DNA of 33,974 nucleotides, from NCBI RefSeq assembly GCF_900112415.1, contig NZ_FOLV01000042.1:1-33974 (forward strand), in the 5' to 3' direction. Of this stretch, positions 16,751 through 33,974 are shown one piece after another. The number at the start of each line of letters is the position of its first letter. The stretch's first letter is position 1. A model generated the notes under the pieces. It saw only the letters and a list, made by a program, of their open reading frames with translations, did no database searches and was not told where the DNA came from. Made by a program: the position numbers and the translations under genes. This DNA is from Bacillus sp. 491mf (GTDB taxonomy: Bacteria > Bacillota > Bacilli > Bacillales > Bacillaceae_G).

Positions 16751-16960
16751 GCTCAGCGAATCGATCACTTTTGCGTCGAATGTCGTCGAGGAATCTTTAA
16801 ATTGTGTCGAAGCGCCGATATATCGCGAAAAGCGCTGATATATTCCAAAGAGTGGTCGATATATCGTGAAAAGCACCGATATATTGCAAAGAACGGTCGA
16901 TAACGGGAAAAGAACTGACTTCAAAAGGCGCTTATGTGTCATTTGGGGTTTGTTTGAAAA
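16751..16960 (+). repeat. Dispersed repeat family 2, copy B (long form, broken hairpin)
   Basis: This copy opens GCTCAGCGAATCGA, then GTCGAATGTCGTCGAGGAAT, then alternating units of the type GCGCCGATATAT and GTGGTCGATATATCG, then CGGTCGATAACGG. It has more of these internal units than copies A and C. The left arm of the terminal hairpin (CTGACTTCAAAAGG) is kept, but the right arm is replaced by TCATTTGGGGTTTG, so no stable stem forms. The acetyltransferase gene begins 80 bases later. Confidence 0.75.
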
Positions 16961-19945: not shown

Positions 19946-19980
19946 TAAAAAAAGAGCTTCTTATTAAGAAAGAAGCTCAA
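19946..19980 (-). terminator. Terminator of the glycerophosphodiesterase gene
   Basis: GAGCTTCTT and AAGAAGCTC form the stem; on the minus strand it is followed by seven T. The stem overlaps the last codons of the gene that ends at 19964. Confidence 0.8.
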
Positions 19981-20689
19981 AGGCACGTGCTGGCCAGTCG
20001 GTAATGATGACATCAACGCCGTAATCTATCATCTTTTGCAGATCCTCATATTCATTAATTGTATAAGGGCGGAATATATATCCTTGTTGCTGGGCCGTTT
20101 GTACAAACTCTTTTGTAAGTAATTTGAAGTTTGGATGGAGGCCATTAGCTTGTCTTTTTTTTGCTTCAGTAATTGGATCTGCAAGCGGTTCATCGTATAA
20201 AATCGCACGGGGAATCTCTGGCGCTAAAGCTGCAAGTAGGGCAACGGATTCATGGTTAAACGAAGAAAATACAATTTGATTAGCAAGATGAAATTCGCGA
20301 ACAAGATCTACAACTTTCTCCTCTATACCTGGGTAACGAATAACATCTGTTTTTAATTCAATATTTAATTGCAGTGTTGTTGTAGAAAGCCAAATAAGCA
20401 CCTCGCGGAGTGTTGGGATTTTTGCTTCATGAAAAGAAGAATCCTTGTAACTACCAGCATCGAGTGCTTGCAATTGTTCGGCTGTTTGTTCACGGACAAG
20501 CCCTGTTCCATTTGTTGTTCTATCCACAGTTTCGTCATGAATAACAACAAGTTCGCCATCTTTTGATACGTGTACATCAAGTTCAATGCCATGCGCACCA
20601 ACGCGCTCTGCTTCTTGAAAAGCAATCATTGTATTTTCAGGGTGTGTACTTCTCACACCACGATGCGCAAGAATAAGTGGTTGTTTCAT
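19964..20689 (-). CDS. Glycerophosphodiester phosphodiesterase
   Basis: The product is 241 residues with the GDPD fold: His9-Arg10 in LAHRGVRSTHPENT, Glu36 and Asp38 in GIELDVHVSKDG, and His51 in VVIHDETVDRTTNGTG. It cleaves glycerophosphodiesters to glycerol-3-phosphate and an alcohol, a way to recover carbon and phosphate from phospholipids or teichoic acids. No signal peptide is seen, so it is probably cytoplasmic (UgpQ-like). The ATG at 20689 lacks a good ribosome site, and the right end of an IS607-like element lies just upstream, so the native control region may be lost. A possible TTG start at 20719 would run into the element flank. Confidence 0.88.
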   Translation of the reverse strand: MKQPLILAHRGVRSTHPENTMIAFQEAERVGAHGIELDVHVSKDGELVVIHDETVDRTTNGTGLVREQTAEQLQALDAGSYKDSSFHEAKIPTLREVLIWLSTTTLQLNIELKTDVIRYPGIEEKVVDLVREFHLANQIVFSSFNHESVALLAALAPEIPRAILYDEPLADPITEAKKRQANGLHPNFKLLTKEFVQTAQQQGYIFRPYTINEYEDLQKMIDYGVDVIITDWPARAFELLS

Positions 20690-20739
20690 AATGAGTTCTG
20701 CTACTAAAAATATATACAAATGTATACTCTTAGAGTTTT

Positions 20740-20870
20740 CCTGCTTCTATGAACCCCATTTTGCCAACTACTCGCTACTTTGGTTTATATGGCTCTCCAC
20801 AGGCGTTAATTCCGATGTAGCCCACCGTACATATATACCTACTATTTATGTTAGTATGGTATATTCTTTT
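20740..20870 (-). ncRNA. Candidate omega-RNA (reRNA) at the element's right end
   Basis: On the minus strand the sequence just past tnpB reads GTGGGCTACATCGGAATTAA, then CGCCTGTGGAGAGCC, then GAAGCAGG. This block recurs downstream of many Bacillus tnpB genes and corresponds to the conserved RNA scaffold region. In TnpB systems the RNA runs through the right end and its last 16-20 bases, the guide, come from the flanking host DNA, here at or near the start of the phosphodiesterase gene. Function is inferred from family knowledge. Confidence 0.5.
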
Positions 20871-22018
20871 GCTTGTAGAAGGTTGATGCATGCGTTTAAG
20901 TCTCTATCCATTTCATTTCCACACTCACATGTATACACTCTGTCAGACAGTTTTAAATCCACTTTCTTATGGCCACAACATGAGCATAATTTAGAAGAAG
21001 GATAAAATCTGTCTACTTGGCGTAATTCAATGCAATATTCTTTACACTTTGCTAATAACCATGTTTGAAACGTATAAAAACATTGCCCCGCGACCGCTTT
21101 AGATAGATGCTTATTCTTCATCATCCCTTTTACATTCAAGTCCTCTATTGTGATATAAGTCGGTTTGGTTTTCACTAACGTATTCACAACAGCTTTTATA
21201 TACTCTAATCGTATATTGGACAATCGAGCATGTAGTTTTTGTATTCTAAGAATATTTTTGTCTATATTCGCTCTTTTATTAGTAACAGACGTTTCACCTC
21301 TCTTTTTTAGATTTTCATACTTTTGCGATAAAGAGCGTTGCTCACGTTTTAGTTTTCTTTCTAGCTTTCTTACTTTATCTGTTTTATTAATGTTTTCGTG
21401 AACTTCTCCGGTACTACAAATAGCAAAATCTTTAATCCCTAAATCAATCCCTAACCCTGTTTCCTCCAACTTTGGCTTTACTTTTGTTTCTTCTACTTCA
21501 CAAAGTATGGATACATAATATCTCCCTGCTTTTTGAGAAACTGTCCCGCTTTTCACAATGGCGTTTTTAGGGATATAACCGTACTCTTTCAACCTTACAA
21601 AGCCAAGAGTAGGTATTTTTACTCGATATCTTTCAATCGTCCAGTCTGTTTTGTTGTTTTTAGGGAAGTAACATTTTACATCTTGATTTTTCTTCTTTTT
21701 AAATCTAGGAAATCCACTAACCCCTGTAAAAAATCTTTTAAACGCTTTTTCTCCATTCATAATAGCTTGCTTTGTGGATTTAGACGACACACTTTTTCTC
21801 CATGCTTTATCCTCATTATTAGGTATATATTCGTTGTTTAACCACTTGGAAAAATCCATTCCACTTACAAATCTACCTTCTTTTTCATAAACCTCTTTAT
21901 TGTGAGAAATGTAGAAATTGTAGATAAATCTGCTAACCCCAATAGTTTGATGTATTTTAGATTTTTGTTCTTGAGTAGGGCTAATTTCTATCTTGTAGGC
22001 TTTTTTCAACTTCCTCAT
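20846..22018 (-). CDS. tnpB: TnpB, RNA-guided nuclease of an IS607-like element
   Basis: The product is 390 residues. An N-terminal helix-turn-helix region (IGVSRFIYNFYISHNK) precedes a RuvC-like nuclease with its catalytic acids in place: Asp192 in GIDLGIKDFAI, Glu292 in ITIEDLNVKGM, and Asp371/373 in MDRDLNA. A zinc ribbon (Cys345, Cys348, Cys364, Cys366) lies inside it. The protein is therefore not a nuclease-dead TldR-type repressor. The ATG at 22018 overlaps the end of the tnpA remnant in another frame, with AAAGG directly before it, so translation was coupled in the parent element. TnpB cuts DNA next to a short target motif, guided by RNA from the element end. Confidence 0.88.
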   Translation of the reverse strand: MRKLKKAYKIEISPTQEQKSKIHQTIGVSRFIYNFYISHNKEVYEKEGRFVSGMDFSKWLNNEYIPNNEDKAWRKSVSSKSTKQAIMNGEKAFKRFFTGVSGFPRFKKKKNQDVKCYFPKNNKTDWTIERYRVKIPTLGFVRLKEYGYIPKNAIVKSGTVSQKAGRYYVSILCEVEETKVKPKLEETGLGIDLGIKDFAICSTGEVHENINKTDKVRKLERKLKREQRSLSQKYENLKKRGETSVTNKRANIDKNILRIQKLHARLSNIRLEYIKAVVNTLVKTKPTYITIEDLNVKGMMKNKHLSKAVAGQCFYTFQTWLLAKCKEYCIELRQVDRFYPSSKLCSCCGHKKVDLKLSDRVYTCECGNEMDRDLNACINLLQAKEYTILT

Positions 22019-22297
22019 CCTTTGCGATTTTTTTCTTGTACTTTCTTAACCCGTATATACGACAGCTAAAAATGTGTAGAATAATTAGAAGTTGAACCCT
22101 TGTATAGATAATAGTCTTTCTACCAATTTGTTTCTTAGAGCTACCCGTATACTCAAGATACTGTTCATATTTATAATACTTTCTATTAGTGGGGGTTCTA
22201 AAAGCCTTTAATTTACCATCATTATCCCATCTGTATAGGACAATAGCGGGCGCGTTTAACAATTCTGCAAATTCTTTGGCTTATAATGTTAACTCAT
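21981..22297 (-). pseudogene. tnpA: IS607-type serine recombinase tnpA, decayed
   Basis: The remaining frame codes 93 residues. LYRWDNDGKLKAFRTPT is the MerR-like DNA-binding domain, RKTIIYTRV is the start of the catalytic domain, and the frame then jumps to ILHIFSCRIYGLRKYKKK, the normal C-terminal end. The catalytic Ser that should follow YTRV and over 100 residues after it are missing. Upstream, KEFAELLN can be read in frame but is cut off by a stop, and a one-base loss in an AAAG run appears to break the link to an ATG at 22297. So there are at least three lesions: an internal deletion, an N-terminal frameshift and a nonsense codon. No recombinase can be made. Confidence 0.8.
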
Positions 22298-22453
22298 ATA
22301 ATCACAATCTTCGCGTAATTACATTGCGCTATAATTGATTATACTTGTATATATTTTTACTAACTAATGAACTTCTTCTTTATTTTAATTCAATTATGAA
22401 ACTGAGTAATTCAAAAGACAACCGTTTAAGGAAAATTTACAAATGTGTAATAG

Positions 22454-22482
22454 TTGCACAAAAGTTAACGTTAACGTAAAAT
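22454..22482 (+). promoter_or_regulatory. Promoter with MerR-type dyad operator
   Basis: TTGCAC (22454-22459) and TAAAAT (22477-22482) are 17 bases apart, and the spacer holds the perfect palindrome GTTAACGTTAAC (22464-22475). A dyad between -35 and -10 is the usual MerR-family arrangement, though their spacers are often 19-20 bases. Confidence 0.5.
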
Positions 22483-22506
22483 GTAATAATGTTGGGAGGG
22501 ATAGAC

Positions 22507-22908
22507 GTGTATAAAATTGAGGAAGTAACTAAACAAACTGGTTTAACAAAGCGGACTCTTCGTTATTATGAGGAAATTGGCTTAATTCATCCACCAGAGC
22601 GTAGTGAAGGGAATATTCGCCTATATACTGACGAAGACGTGGAGAAAATAAAAAAAATTGTAGAAGCGAAAGAAGTATTAGGTATTACGCTTCAAGAAAT
22701 GCAGTATTTCTTATCCCTTAAAGAACGTATGGAGCAAAGAAAAAATAGTGAAAATCCGCGTGATCGGGAAGTCATTCAAGAAATAGCCAATATGCTGGCA
22801 AATCAAATTGAGACGCTAGACAAGAAAATGTTACAAATGAAGCGTGTGAAAGAAGAATTAGAACATAGCTTAGAAAAAGCAACAAAGTTTTTAGAAAGAG
22901 GAGAATGA
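22507..22908 (+). CDS. MerR-family transcription regulator
   Basis: The product is 133 residues. The N-terminal winged helix begins YKIEEVTKQTGLTKRTLRYYEEIGL and continues with RLYTDEDVEKIKKI; the C-terminus (from about residue 75) is a charged dimerisation coiled coil without the Cys or ligand domain of metal or drug sensors. The start is GTG at 22507, placed by GGGAGGG 6 bases upstream; the earlier ATG at 22489 includes that site. The stop overlaps the following reading region by 4 bases (ATGA), so it is translationally linked to the exporter gene, its likely target along with itself. Confidence 0.85.
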   Translation: MYKIEEVTKQTGLTKRTLRYYEEIGLIHPPERSEGNIRLYTDEDVEKIKKIVEAKEVLGITLQEMQYFLSLKERMEQRKNSENPRDREVIQEIANMLANQIETLDKKMLQMKRVKEELEHSLEKATKFLERGE

Positions 22909-30551: not shown

Positions 30552-33500
30552 GTGCATTTAAAAAGAATAACTTCGATTTTCTCAATTATAATGATTTTTA
30601 TGTTTACTATAGGCCAGAGTTTAATGCCTATAATAGCAAATGCACAAGAGTTAAATACAGCAGGACTTGTAGATAGACTGGATTTGGAAAAAACAGATCT
30701 ACAGAGCTCAGAGTGGACGCAATTAACTGTAAACTTCAGTGAAAAGGATAGACTTAAGCTGAAGCCTGGAGACACACTAACATTAACACTACCTCCAGAA
30801 TTACATGGATTTCCTACAAAGATTCAGTTAAGTGATTATGGTGAGTGTAAAGTAACTGGAGATAAAGTGATATGTACGTTTAATGATAAGGTAAATAAAC
30901 ACCAAAATATTAAAGGAAGTTTTTATCTTAACGTTCAAGCTACTAATGTAGGAACGGATGAAAAGAAAGAAATTGAAACAAATTTCGGTACAAATTTAGA
31001 TAAGCAAACTATAACAATTACCGGTCCAACAGGTGGTGGTGGTACAGATCCTGGAGAGCAACCGTTTTTTTATAAAACAGGTGATACGAACTCAGGTCAG
31101 GAAAATGTACTGCGTTGGTTCTTGAATATAAACTTAAATAAAGACAATTTAAGTAGTGATATTGTTGTGAATGATAATTTACATGAAGGTCAAACGCTTA
31201 ATAAAGATAGTTTCAAGATCCACATTAATAATGGTTCTGGAGTATCACCTCAAGCCTTTGAAGCTCAAGGTTATGGAACCATTATGTTTAATGGTGATAA
31301 ATCATTTAAAGTTGTGATAAATAAAGATAAAGCGAGTGGTAATGCATTTTCGGTTTGGTATACATCTACTTTAACGGAAGCCGGAAAGAAGCAAGACTAC
31401 TTTAAGAATGATTATCAGGTTGATTACCAAGTCACTGGAAAAAAACCGGCTTCTGAATCAGGTACTTTCCCAATCAAAAATATGGCAGGTGGCGGTACTG
31501 CTGAAGGTGACAAGGTTTCAAAAGGAACGCTAAGAATTGTTAAGCACCTTGAAGGAAATGAAGAAAAAGTAATACCGAATGTTAAGTTTAAGTTGTATAA
31601 AGCATCGGGCGAACAAGTTGGAGATGAATATATAACAGATGAAAAAGGTATAATCGAAATCAAAAATTTAACACCAGGTAAATACTATGTACAAGAAGTT
31701 TCAGCTCCAAACTATATTGATTTTGATCCTAAGGTAAAAGTAGAGTTTGAAGTGGAAGAAGATGCTGTAAACGGAATTAAGTTGCCGATTTCGAATAAAG
31801 TGAAAACTACATCGATTGCTGGAACGAAGACGTGGAATGATAACAACGCATCAGATCGTCCAAGTTCAATCAAAGTAGATTTACTCCAAAATGGCCAAAA
31901 GATTAATACGAAGGAAGTAACGGCGGCAACAAACTGGAAATACGAATTTACAGGTTTAGCAGTTTACGATGCAGATGGCAAAGAGTATAAGTACGAAGTG
32001 AAAGAACAGCCAGTAAACGGATATGAATCCAAAGTGAATGGTTATGACATTACAAATACAAAAGCAGGAAAAGTAAACGTAGAGGGAACAAAAACTTGGA
32101 AGGATAACAATGCAGCAGATCGTCCAAGCTCAATCCAAGTAGAGTTATTCCGAAACGGTGAAAAGATTGACACGAAAGAAGTAACAGCGGCAATAAACTG
32201 GAAATACACATTTGCAGATTTACCGGCATATGATGCAAATGGAAAAGCCTACACGTATACAGTGAAAGAACAATCAGTCCCAGGATATGAATCCAAAGTA
32301 AATGGTTATGACATCACAAATACAAAAGTAGGTAAGACAAAAGTAGAAGGAATAAAAACTTGGAAGGATAACAATGCAACGAATCGTCCAAGTTCAATCA
32401 AAGTAGACTTACTACAAAATGGTAAAGTAGTAGATACAAAAGAAGTAAGTGCGGCAACAAGTTGGAAATACACGTTTGACAACCTACAAGCCTACGATGC
32501 GAATGGAGTAGCATACAAGTATGAAGTGAAAGAACAACCAGTCCCAGGATATGAATCCAAAGTGAATGGTTACGACATCACAAATACAAAAGTAGGTAAG
32601 ACTTCCGTTACAGGAATGAAGACGTGGAAAGGTGGCACAGAGGAAGAACATAAAGCCATCAAAGTAGACTTACTACAAAACGGTCAAGTGATTGACGCGA
32701 AAGAAGTAAGCGCGGCAACAAATTGGATGTACACGTTTGACAATCTACAAGCCTACGATGCGAATGGAGTAGCATACAAGTATGAAGTGAAAGAACAACC
32801 AGTCCCAGGATATGAATCCAAAGTAGATGGTTTTAATATCACGAATACAAAAGTAGGAAAAGTGAACGTAGAAGGAACGAAAACGTGGAACGATAACAAC
32901 GCAACAGATCGTCCAAGCTCAATTAAGATAGACTTATACCAAAATGGTACGGTTTTACTGACGCAATATGTAACATCAGCAAATGATTGGAAGTACACAT
33001 TTGCAGATTTACCAGCTTATGATGCGAAAGGAGTAGCCTATACGTATACAGTGAAAGAACAATCAGTTCCAGGATATGAATCCAAAGTAAATGGTTATGA
33101 CATCACGAATACAAAAGTAGGCGAAACGAAGGTAGAAGGAACGAAGACATGGAAAGACGATGGTGCAAAAGATCGTCCGAAAATGATCAAAGTAGACTTA
33201 CTACAAAATGGCAAAGTAGTAGATACACAAGAAGTAACAGCAGCAACAAATTGGAAGTATACGTTTGACAAACTCCCAGCTTATGATGCGAATGGAGTAG
33301 CATACAAGTATGAAGTGAAGGAACAGCTGATCGACGGATACAAATCCGAAGTAAACGGTTCAGACATCACAAATACAAAGGTTGGCGAAACGAAAGTAGA
33401 AGGAACGAAGACATGGAAAGACGATAATGCAAAAGATCGTCCGAAAATGATCAAAGTAGACTTACTACAAAACGGTAAAGTAATTGCAACAAAAGAAGTA

Positions 33501-33974
33501 ACAGCAGCAACAAATTGGAAATACACGTTTGAAAACCTACCAGCTTACGATGCGAAAGGAGTAGCATACAAGTATGAAGTGAAGGAACAACCGGTAGACG
33601 GATACAAATCCGAAGTAAACGGTTCAGACATCACAAATACAAAAGTAGGTGAAACAAAGGTAGAGGGAACGAAGACATGGAAAGACGATGATGCGAAAGA
33701 TCGTCCGAAAATGATCAAAGTAGACCTACTACAAAACGGTCAAGTAATTGACACGAAAGAAGTAAGTGCGGCAACAAATTGGAAGTACACGTTTGAAAAC
33801 CTACCAGCCTATGATGCAGAAGGTAAGGCATACAAGTATGAAGTGAAAGAACAGCCAGTAGACGGATACAAATCCGAAGTAAATGGTTATGATATCACGA
33901 ATACAAAAACTAAGGGCGAAACAGGTGAAGATCCAAAAGATCCGAACAAAGGTCCAAATGAAGATCCAAAAGAT
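30552..33974 (+). CDS. Cna-type collagen-adhesin-like surface protein, cut by window end
   Basis: The frame is open from GTG 30552 to the last base (1141 codons), so the 3' end is outside. A stop codon two codons upstream of the GTG excludes an earlier start, and GAAGGGGG is 11 bases before it. Order: signal peptide (about 1-32, ending IIANA), an adhesin head to about residue 310 (LRWFLNINLNKDNL and a VNDNLHEGQTLN motif, as in Cna/SdrG N-domains), a SpaA-like domain (about 325-415, GTLRIVKHLEG to YYVQEVSAPNY), and eight Cna-B repeats (about 417-1120). A Pro/Asp/Lys-rich spacer (GEDPKDPNKGPNED) then starts, as before LPXTG wall anchors. Conserved Lys, Glu and Asn in each repeat (GTKTW, YEVKEQ, DITNTK) suit intramolecular isopeptide bonds. 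Ligand is not shown. Confidence 0.85.
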   Translation, partial: MHLKRITSIFSIIMIFMFTIGQSLMPIIANAQELNTAGLVDRLDLEKTDLQSSEWTQLTVNFSEKDRLKLKPGDTLTLTLPPELHGFPTKIQLSDYGECKVTGDKVICTFNDKVNKHQNIKGSFYLNVQATNVGTDEKKEIETNFGTNLDKQTITITGPTGGGGTDPGEQPFFYKTGDTNSGQENVLRWFLNINLNKDNLSSDIVVNDNLHEGQTLNKDSFKIHINNGSGVSPQAFEAQGYGTIMFNGDKSFKVVINKDKASGNAFSVWYTSTLTEAGKKQDYFKNDYQVDYQVTGKKPASESGTFPIKNMAGGGTAEGDKVSKGTLRIVKHLEGNEEKVIPNVKFKLYKASGEQVGDEYITDEKGIIEIKNLTPGKYYVQEVSAPNYIDFDPKVKVEFEVEEDAVNGIKLPISNKVKTTSIAGTKTWNDNNASDRPSSIKVDLLQNGQKINTKEVTAATNWKYEFTGLAVYDADGKEYKYEVKEQPVNGYESKVNGYDITNTKAGKVNVEGTKTWKDNNAADRPSSIQVELFRNGEKIDTKEVTAAINWKYTFADLPAYDANGKAYTYTVKEQSVPGYESKVNGYDITNTKVGKTKVEGIKTWKDNNATNRPSSIKVDLLQNGKVVDTKEVSAATSWKYTFDNLQAYDANGVAYKYEVKEQPVPGYESKVNGYDITNTKVGKTSVTGMKTWKGGTEEEHKAIKVDLLQNGQVIDAKEVSAATNWMYTFDNLQAYDANGVAYKYEVKEQPVPGYESKVDGFNITNTKVGKVNVEGTKTWNDNNATDRPSSIKIDLYQNGTVLLTQYVTSANDWKYTFADLPAYDAKGVAYTYTVKEQSVPGYESKVNGYDITNTKVGETKVEGTKTWKDDGAKDRPKMIKVDLLQNGKVVDTQEVTAATNWKYTFDKLPAYDANGVAYKYEVKEQLIDGYKSEVNGSDITNTKVGETKVEGTKTWKDDNAKDRPKMIKVDLLQNGKVIATKEVTAATNWKYTFENLPAYDAKGVAYKYEVKEQPVDGYKSEVNGSDITNTKVGETKVEGTKTWKDDDAKDRPKMIKVDLLQNGQVIDTKEVSAATNWKYTFENLPAYDAEGKAYKYEVKEQPVDGYKSEVNGYDITNTKTKGETGEDPKDPNKGPNEDPKD
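31800..33909 (+). repeat. Eight tandem Cna-B repeats within the adhesin gene
   Basis: Each unit starts near GTKTW and ends DITNTK. The TGG of the KTW motif lies at 31833, 32097, 32361, 32625, 32886, 33150, 33414 and 33678, giving spacings of 264 bases (88 codons) throughout except 261 between units 4 and 5. Unit 4 has a different loop (GGTEEEHKA in place of DRPSS), and units 6-8 are the most alike, with KDRPKMIKVDLLQNG. Confidence 0.9.

What the first reader, a model, noticed from the sequence alone, without database searches (positions are those of the whole stretch)
20700..22400. IS607-like element that lost its recombinase but kept an intact TnpB and guide-RNA region
Seen: tnpA has an internal in-frame deletion removing the catalytic Ser and most of the recombinase domain, plus N-terminal frame damage, while the 390-residue TnpB keeps all three RuvC acids and the zinc ribbon. 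Known: TnpB is an RNA-guided nuclease whose guide comes from DNA beside the element's right end. Inference: TnpB is either being retained for its own sake (element persistence, or domestication) or the tnpA loss is recent. Intact catalytic residues argue against a repressor-type (TldR) role.
Basis: partly seen in the sequence, partly recalled or inferred. Interest (0 to 1): 0.7.

Follow-up and report, generated by a model that had tools for sequence, protein, structure and literature searches.

The report
Transposase-less IS607 element, nuclease kept
A jumping gene has lost the enzyme that moves it but kept its RNA-guided DNA cutter, and it sits in the ribosome-binding site of a metabolic gene; in the relatives examined this broken-mover form is common and some copies have still spread.

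Summary
A 1677-bp IS607-type element (20698-22374, minus strand) carries an intact 390-aa TnpB with its RuvC acids, a RAGATH-18 guide RNA, and a tnpA remnant lacking about 309 nt with the catalytic Ser. It belongs to the RAGATH-18/ISFba1 family, whose describers report that 30% of its TnpAs are pseudogenes. Among 70 assessable relatives, 27 have full-length tnpA, 21 an internal deletion (12 sizes), 12 no detectable tnpA, 10 one end missing; 19 of the 21 keep tnpB intact. Deletion copies have moved (empty sites in a sister genome), and tnpB evolved with dN/dS about 0.1-0.2 afterwards. So the likely reading is a non-autonomous derivative, presumably mobilised in trans, with TnpB kept by selection on the element rather than by the host. 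New here: these elements insert right behind Shine-Dalgarno motifs. 68 of 74 distinct right ends lie 3-15 nt before a start codon of a long ORF (26% for AGGAG elsewhere), so guides read across start codons; here glpQ. My library searches found no statement of this. The host genome and same-site sister strains are not held, so when this copy lost tnpA, and selection on it, are untested.

The parts
20698..22374 (-). whole element, 1677 bp, IS607/RAGATH-18 type
   Evidence: Right end: in 45 of the relatives in the BLAST output the match stops at 20696-20698 (85 loci in it, two of them duplicates). Left end: same 8-nt distance from the conserved TAGTT block as in relatives whose ends were fixed by natural empty sites.
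20846..22018 (-). tnpB, 390 aa RNA-guided nuclease, intact
21981..22262 (-). tnpA remnant: HTH domain joined to C-terminal tail; catalytic Ser and core missing, N-terminal codons out of frame
   Evidence: frame by reading
20698..20845 (-). guide-RNA scaffold region (5' flank, RAGATH-18 motif, 3' flank up to the right end)
   Evidence: aligned end to end with five relatives
20738..20803 (-). RAGATH-18 motif (RF03064)
   Evidence: 61.6 bits, gathering 44.9
20678..20697 (-). inferred 20-nt guide; covers the glpQ start codon
   Evidence: starts right after the right end; only match in the window at up to 3 mismatches
22375..22379 (-). TAM slot beside the left end; reads AGAAG instead of AGGAG
   Evidence: 31 of 34 relatives with a left-end match of 0.70 or better have GGAG in the 16 nt before it; relatives with a poorer match were left out
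22345..22362 (-). left subterminal repeat, 17 of 18 bases identical to the inverted right copy
20702..20719 (-). right subterminal repeat
19964..20689 (-). glpQ-like glycerophosphodiester phosphodiesterase, cut off from its Shine-Dalgarno by the element (name by resemblance, no family search run on it)

Best explanation
It is a non-autonomous derivative of an IS607-type element of the RAGATH-18/ISFba1 family. The ancestor inserted just behind the Shine-Dalgarno of glpQ (target AGGAG). An internal deletion removed the catalytic part of tnpA, before or after this insertion. Both ends, tnpB and the guide RNA remain. Shown: anatomy, ends, intact nuclease residues, and the guide region reading over the glpQ start. 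Inferred: TnpB with this RNA cuts glpQ alleles that lack the element (AGGAG followed by the guide sequence) and so protects the occupied allele when an empty one arrives by recombination. TnpB is kept because selection acts on the element, and a TnpA from elsewhere could still move it.
For: Family membership and intact parts. Target: glpQ orthologues with AAGGAG at the right distance. Recurrence: 21 of 70 assessable relatives have internal tnpA deletions of 12 sizes, 19 of those 21 with intact tnpB; the window's 309 is unlike any of them. Mobility after the loss: Anaerostipes sp. 992a holds one full-length copy (L110) and two deletion types in several copies, 94-98% identical to L110 over the tnpB part. 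In Clostridium sp. KNHs214 and Haloimpatiens lingqiaonensis copies sharing one 418-nt deletion sit at different sites; the other genome is empty at three of these by both flanks, two of them (L014/L155, L007/L161) joining exactly with no base lost or duplicated, and at a fourth (L016/L159) by the right flank only. Selection after the loss: pairwise dN/dS of tnpB 0.08-0.22 in that group and 0.15-0.25 within the Anaerostipes deletion types.
Against: No second copy or sister strain of this very element is held, so neither its own mobility after the deletion nor selection on its own tnpB is shown. The TAM slot reads AGAAG; single TAM changes abolished cleavage by ISFba1 (PMC11061315, section 6 read), so if the original glpQ site also read AGAAG the empty allele would not be cut. 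tnpB decays in some copies: broken in 6 of 27 loci with full tnpA, 2 of 21 deletion loci, 4 of 12 without tnpA. The insertion shared by L084 and L027 has lost the tnpB 5' part in L027. Loci were found by tnpB and only the best 80 of 218 were kept, so intact tnpB is over-represented. Trans action is not proven: KNHs214 shows only tnpA fragments of this type, and the intact TnpA of Haloimpatiens lies in an element only 75% identical to L007. In Anaerostipes tnpB similarity does not follow deletion type (L049 is closer to L048 than to L037), so copies may have exchanged sequence and its dN/dS is a weaker test.
Confidence: 0.72

Rival explanations
1. Decaying remnant: tnpA was lost here recently, tnpB is simply not yet broken, and the locus has no activity or selection.
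For: tnpA carries both frame damage and a deletion, and the TAM slot differs from the family's motif; one copy in the window; broken tnpB occurs in relatives.
Against: tnpB is fully open with its catalytic residues and the RNA scaffold is intact, although the tnpA remnant, a quarter of its length, holds at least two lesions; tnpB in other deletion lineages is under purifying selection.
Confidence: 0.3
2. Domestication: the host has recruited TnpB and its RNA, for instance as a guard or regulator of glpQ.
For: Intact nuclease in an element without transposase; the guide reads over the glpQ start codon, and the guide RNA and glpQ run in the same direction with no terminator-like site found by a consensus scan of 20500-22600.
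Against: The guide-over-start arrangement is seen in 68 of 74 family sites, so it says nothing special about glpQ; glpQ is unoccupied in L086 and L080; RuvC acids are intact, whereas TldRs are described as RuvC-inactivated (PMC13418256, passages).
Confidence: 0.07
3. TldR-like RNA-guided repressor of a gene.
For: Retained TnpB-like protein without transposase next to a host gene.
Against: D192, E292, D371 intact; mobile relatives with the same layout.
Confidence: 0.02

Closest known systems
RAGATH-18 IS607 TnpB systems / ISFba1 (Ren et al. 2024, PMC11061315; structure 8IAZ)
   Same: TnpB of about 390 aa, separate RAGATH-18 guide RNA downstream of tnpB, IS607 TnpA, AG-rich TAM beside the left end; the paper states that 80% of loci have two ORFs and 30% of those TnpAs are pseudo (sections 5, 6, 10, 12 and 38 read).
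   Different: Here tnpA has a large internal deletion (the paper names frameshifts and stops); the TAM slot reads AGAAG, not AGGAG. The words Shine, ribosome, start codon and insertion site do not occur in its main text (word search).
IS1341-type (tnpB-only) insertion sequences
   Same: TnpB kept, transposase absent (recalled; IS1341 is named as a class in PMC9956272, passages seen).
   Different: This one has a recognisable IS607 tnpA remnant, a RAGATH-18 guide RNA and ends of this IS607 family.
ISXfa1 IS607 TnpB (PMC10711439, section 25 read)
   Same: IS607 element whose guide RNA runs over the right end into the flank, with the fixed flanking nucleotide taken into the scaffold.
   Different: Another IS607 TnpB; here the shared core is read as AG (inference from the ends).
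TldR RNA-guided repressors (PMC13418256, passages seen)
   Same: TnpB relatives kept beside host genes without a transposon role.
   Different: TldRs are RuvC-inactivated; this TnpB has the RuvC acids.

Membership tests
RAGATH-18/ISFba1-type IS607 TnpB | TnpB of about 390 aa with RuvC and zinc ribbon | tested here: met
RAGATH-18/ISFba1-type IS607 TnpB | RAGATH-18 RNA downstream of tnpB on the same strand | tested here: met
RAGATH-18/ISFba1-type IS607 TnpB | AG-rich cognate TAM (AGGAG or GAGGG in vitro) at the left end | tested here: inconclusive
   The slot holds an AG-rich motif one base off, AGAAG; the empty target allele is not held
RAGATH-18/ISFba1-type IS607 TnpB | RNA-guided DNA cleavage | not testable with these tools
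   needs an assay
IS607 (autonomous element) | Intact serine recombinase TnpA | tested here: not met
   only HTH and C-terminal pieces; hence called a derivative, not an autonomous member
IS607 (autonomous element) | No target-site duplication, two conserved ends | tested here: inconclusive
   both ends present; exact joins without duplication shown for two relatives, not for this copy
TldR repressors | RuvC catalytic residues lost | tested here: not met

The most novel reading that the evidence does not exclude
RAGATH-18 IS607 elements are Shine-Dalgarno-homing elements. They enter directly behind the AGGAG of a gene, so the TAM is a ribosome-binding site and nearly every guide RNA carries a start-codon region of the host. 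The tnpA-deleted form seen here is a selected, trans-mobilised, nuclease-armed parasite of its own full-length kin, in which TnpB alone keeps the occupied allele in the population.
Probability: 0.5. Interest if true: 0.65.

Novelty: new member of a known kind. Interest (0 to 1): 0.48.

Why it matters
Whether TnpB serves the element or the transposase is a standing question. Lineages that lost tnpA once and then spread give a test: selection on tnpB after the loss can be measured (about 0.1-0.2 here). The Shine-Dalgarno rule would explain where this family lands, why it lies before genes, and what its guides target.

Tried and rejected
TldR-type repressor: rejected on catalytic residues. Meaning in the in-frame fusion of the tnpA remnant: rejected, since relatives' deletions are a mixture of multiples of three and not, and three of five remnants examined in the 418-nt group carry stops inside the HTH part. 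Host identification and same-site comparison failed: no genome is held for the window; 19 family genomes and 397 order genomes gave at best about 84% identity over speE. Exact guide sequence in viral contigs: no match. Plasmids: 72 records with relatives, none at 90% identity or above and no Bacillus among the organism names. Empty sites for the Ectobacillus antri-type insertions: none found in 19 genomes each. Anaerostipes L078 flank: orthologues in 3 other genomes (4 of 5 matched, its own included), no clean empty site read. Held-out viral contigs for the start-codon rule: of 28 loci 16 showed no right-end motif in the stretch scanned and 4 repeated a site; of the 8 distinct sites left (first motif of each) 6 lay before a start codon of a long ORF, 3 of them ATG, weaker than the main set and small; a second motif in L126 was left out. 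First locus classification by BLAST pieces mislabelled gapped cases and was replaced; its tnpB column was kept. One search uses score cut-offs, so borderline loci such as L001, L004 and L032 could change group.

Full report
WHAT IS THERE. On the minus strand an intact tnpB (22018-20846, 390 aa) is followed by a RAGATH-18 RNA (20803-20738; 61.6 bits, gathering 44.9) and preceded by a tnpA remnant (22262-21981). TnpB matches the family model guided_TnpB at E 4.7e-91 and, among solved structures, best 8iaz at E 2.4e-141, which is the ISFba1 TnpB complex (PMC11061315, section 38). D192, E292, D371 and the zinc-ribbon cysteines are present. In the ISFba1 paper the active-site residues are D194, E290 and D371. 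I placed the window's residues by alignment and motif; for the third the offset between chain and paper numbering differs from that of the first two, so that one rests on the motif. The tnpA remnant keeps the helix-turn-helix and the C-terminal tail; 309 nt between them, including the catalytic Ser, are missing and the middle piece is not detected.

ENDS AND TARGET. In 45 relatives of the BLAST output (85 loci, two duplicates) the match stops at 20696-20698, so the right end is 20698, with the family's terminal TTTTAGTAGCAG. The left end is 22374, set by the 8-nt distance between target motif and the conserved TAGTT block. The element is 1677 bp, with subterminal inverted repeats identical at 17 of 18 bases. 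The 20 nt beyond the right end, the inferred guide, read AACTCATT and then the ATG of glpQ. In two held genomes, Ectobacillus panaciterrae (L080) and an unnamed one of its family (L086), glpQ has AAGGAG 7-8 nt before the same ATG. So the element most likely entered just behind the glpQ Shine-Dalgarno. The slot at the left end now reads AGAAG, where 31 of 34 relatives with a well-matched left end (0.70 or better; poorer matches left out) have GGAG close by. Whether the ancestral site had AGGAG is inferred, not seen.

THE FAMILY INSERTS BEHIND SHINE-DALGARNO MOTIFS. Of 78 loci considered, a right end was found by motif in 75, giving 74 distinct guides, the window's among them. In 68 of the 74 a start codon of an ORF of at least 50 codons lies 3-15 nt beyond the right end (ATG in 55 of 74); random same-strand positions give 15.4% and 7.7%. 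A stricter control, 592 AGGAG motifs elsewhere in the same loci, gives 26.4% and 16.2% (binomial p 1e-32 and 3e-28; the loci are not fully independent, several come from one genome). Insertions inside genes may be purged, so part of the excess may be survival and not choice. In viral contigs kept apart, 6 of 8 distinct sites fit, 3 with ATG. The paper that named the AGGAG TAM does not hold the words Shine, ribosome or start codon in its main text. Searches for IS607 with Shine-Dalgarno (one paper, about TldR, its passages unrelated to insertion), TnpB with AGGAG (that same RAGATH-18 paper) and TnpB with ribosome binding site and insertion sequence (three papers, listings only) showed no such statement; only open-licence papers are held.

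THE tnpA LOSS IS COMMON AND REPEATED. Of 79 genome loci, 9 lie at a contig edge. Of the 70 others, 27 have full-length tnpA (not all with an open frame), 21 an internal deletion, 12 no detectable tnpA, 8 lack the N-terminal and 2 the C-terminal part. The 21 deletions have 12 sizes (188 and 189 counted as one), none equal to the window's 309. tnpB is intact in 21 of 27, 19 of 21 and 8 of 12 of the first three groups. Of 20 loci given to the RNA search (19 of the 21 deletion loci, L051 and L059 not given, and one full copy), 19 have RAGATH-18; L053 does not reach the threshold. This agrees with the paper's statement that 30% of TnpAs at two-ORF loci are pseudo (section 5). The loci were collected by tnpB and the best 80 of 218 kept, so tnpB loss is under-counted.

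DELETION COPIES HAVE MOVED. Anaerostipes sp. 992a has one full-length copy (L110) and two deletion types in several copies each, 94-98% identical to L110 over the tnpB part. Five copies in Clostridium sp. KNHs214 and one in Haloimpatiens lingqiaonensis share a 418-nt deletion. At four of these sites the other genome is empty: L014/L155 and L007/L161 join exactly, with no base lost or duplicated; L015/L165 is empty with a small difference at the joint and extra bases in the left flank; for L016/L159 only the right flank aligns well. In KNHs214 the search found only tnpA fragments of this type; Haloimpatiens has an intact one, 73% identical to the L013 query, but in an element only 75% identical to L007. 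That TnpA acts in trans is inferred. After the deletion tnpB still evolved at dN/dS 0.08-0.22 (five copies of the 418-nt group) and 0.15-0.25 (Anaerostipes types), while tnpA remnants have stops inside the HTH part in three of five copies of the 418-nt group. In Anaerostipes tnpB similarity does not follow deletion type (L049/L048 dS 0.058, L049/L037 0.120), so exchange between copies is likely and the 418-nt group is the better test.

WHAT IT MEANS FOR THE WINDOW. By analogy the window copy is a tnpA-deleted, nuclease-armed derivative. It most likely persists because TnpB cuts glpQ alleles lacking the element; this is inferred from the described function of ISFba1-type TnpB. dN/dS of the window tnpB against relatives (0.09 with L002, 0.08 with L001, near saturation at synonymous sites; saturated against three others) only shows selection over the long past. 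Host domestication is possible but has no support beyond intactness. The element parts glpQ from its Shine-Dalgarno; the right end puts AGCAG in its place, which might keep weak translation (inference).

LIMITS. All function is inferred from sequence.

Noticed in passing
window 30552-33974: Surface-protein-like ORF with a 264-bp tandem repeat, 7.9 copies at 31821-33908, Cna-B-like by eye, running off the window end.
   Followed up: no
window 16810-16902: Short intergenic array of about 20/41-bp units with CGATATAT motifs.
   Followed up: no
   Followed up: partly
L078:1613-1687: A second RAGATH-18 RNA upstream of the main element in Anaerostipes, with part of a tnpB at 749-1447.
   Followed up: no
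L045:5420-7183: Group II intron pieces close to an Anaerostipes element.
   Followed up: no
right ends of the family (e.g. window 20698-20702): The terminal AGCAG or GGCAG takes the place of the displaced Shine-Dalgarno and matches AGGAG at most positions; it could soften the effect on the downstream gene.
   Followed up: no
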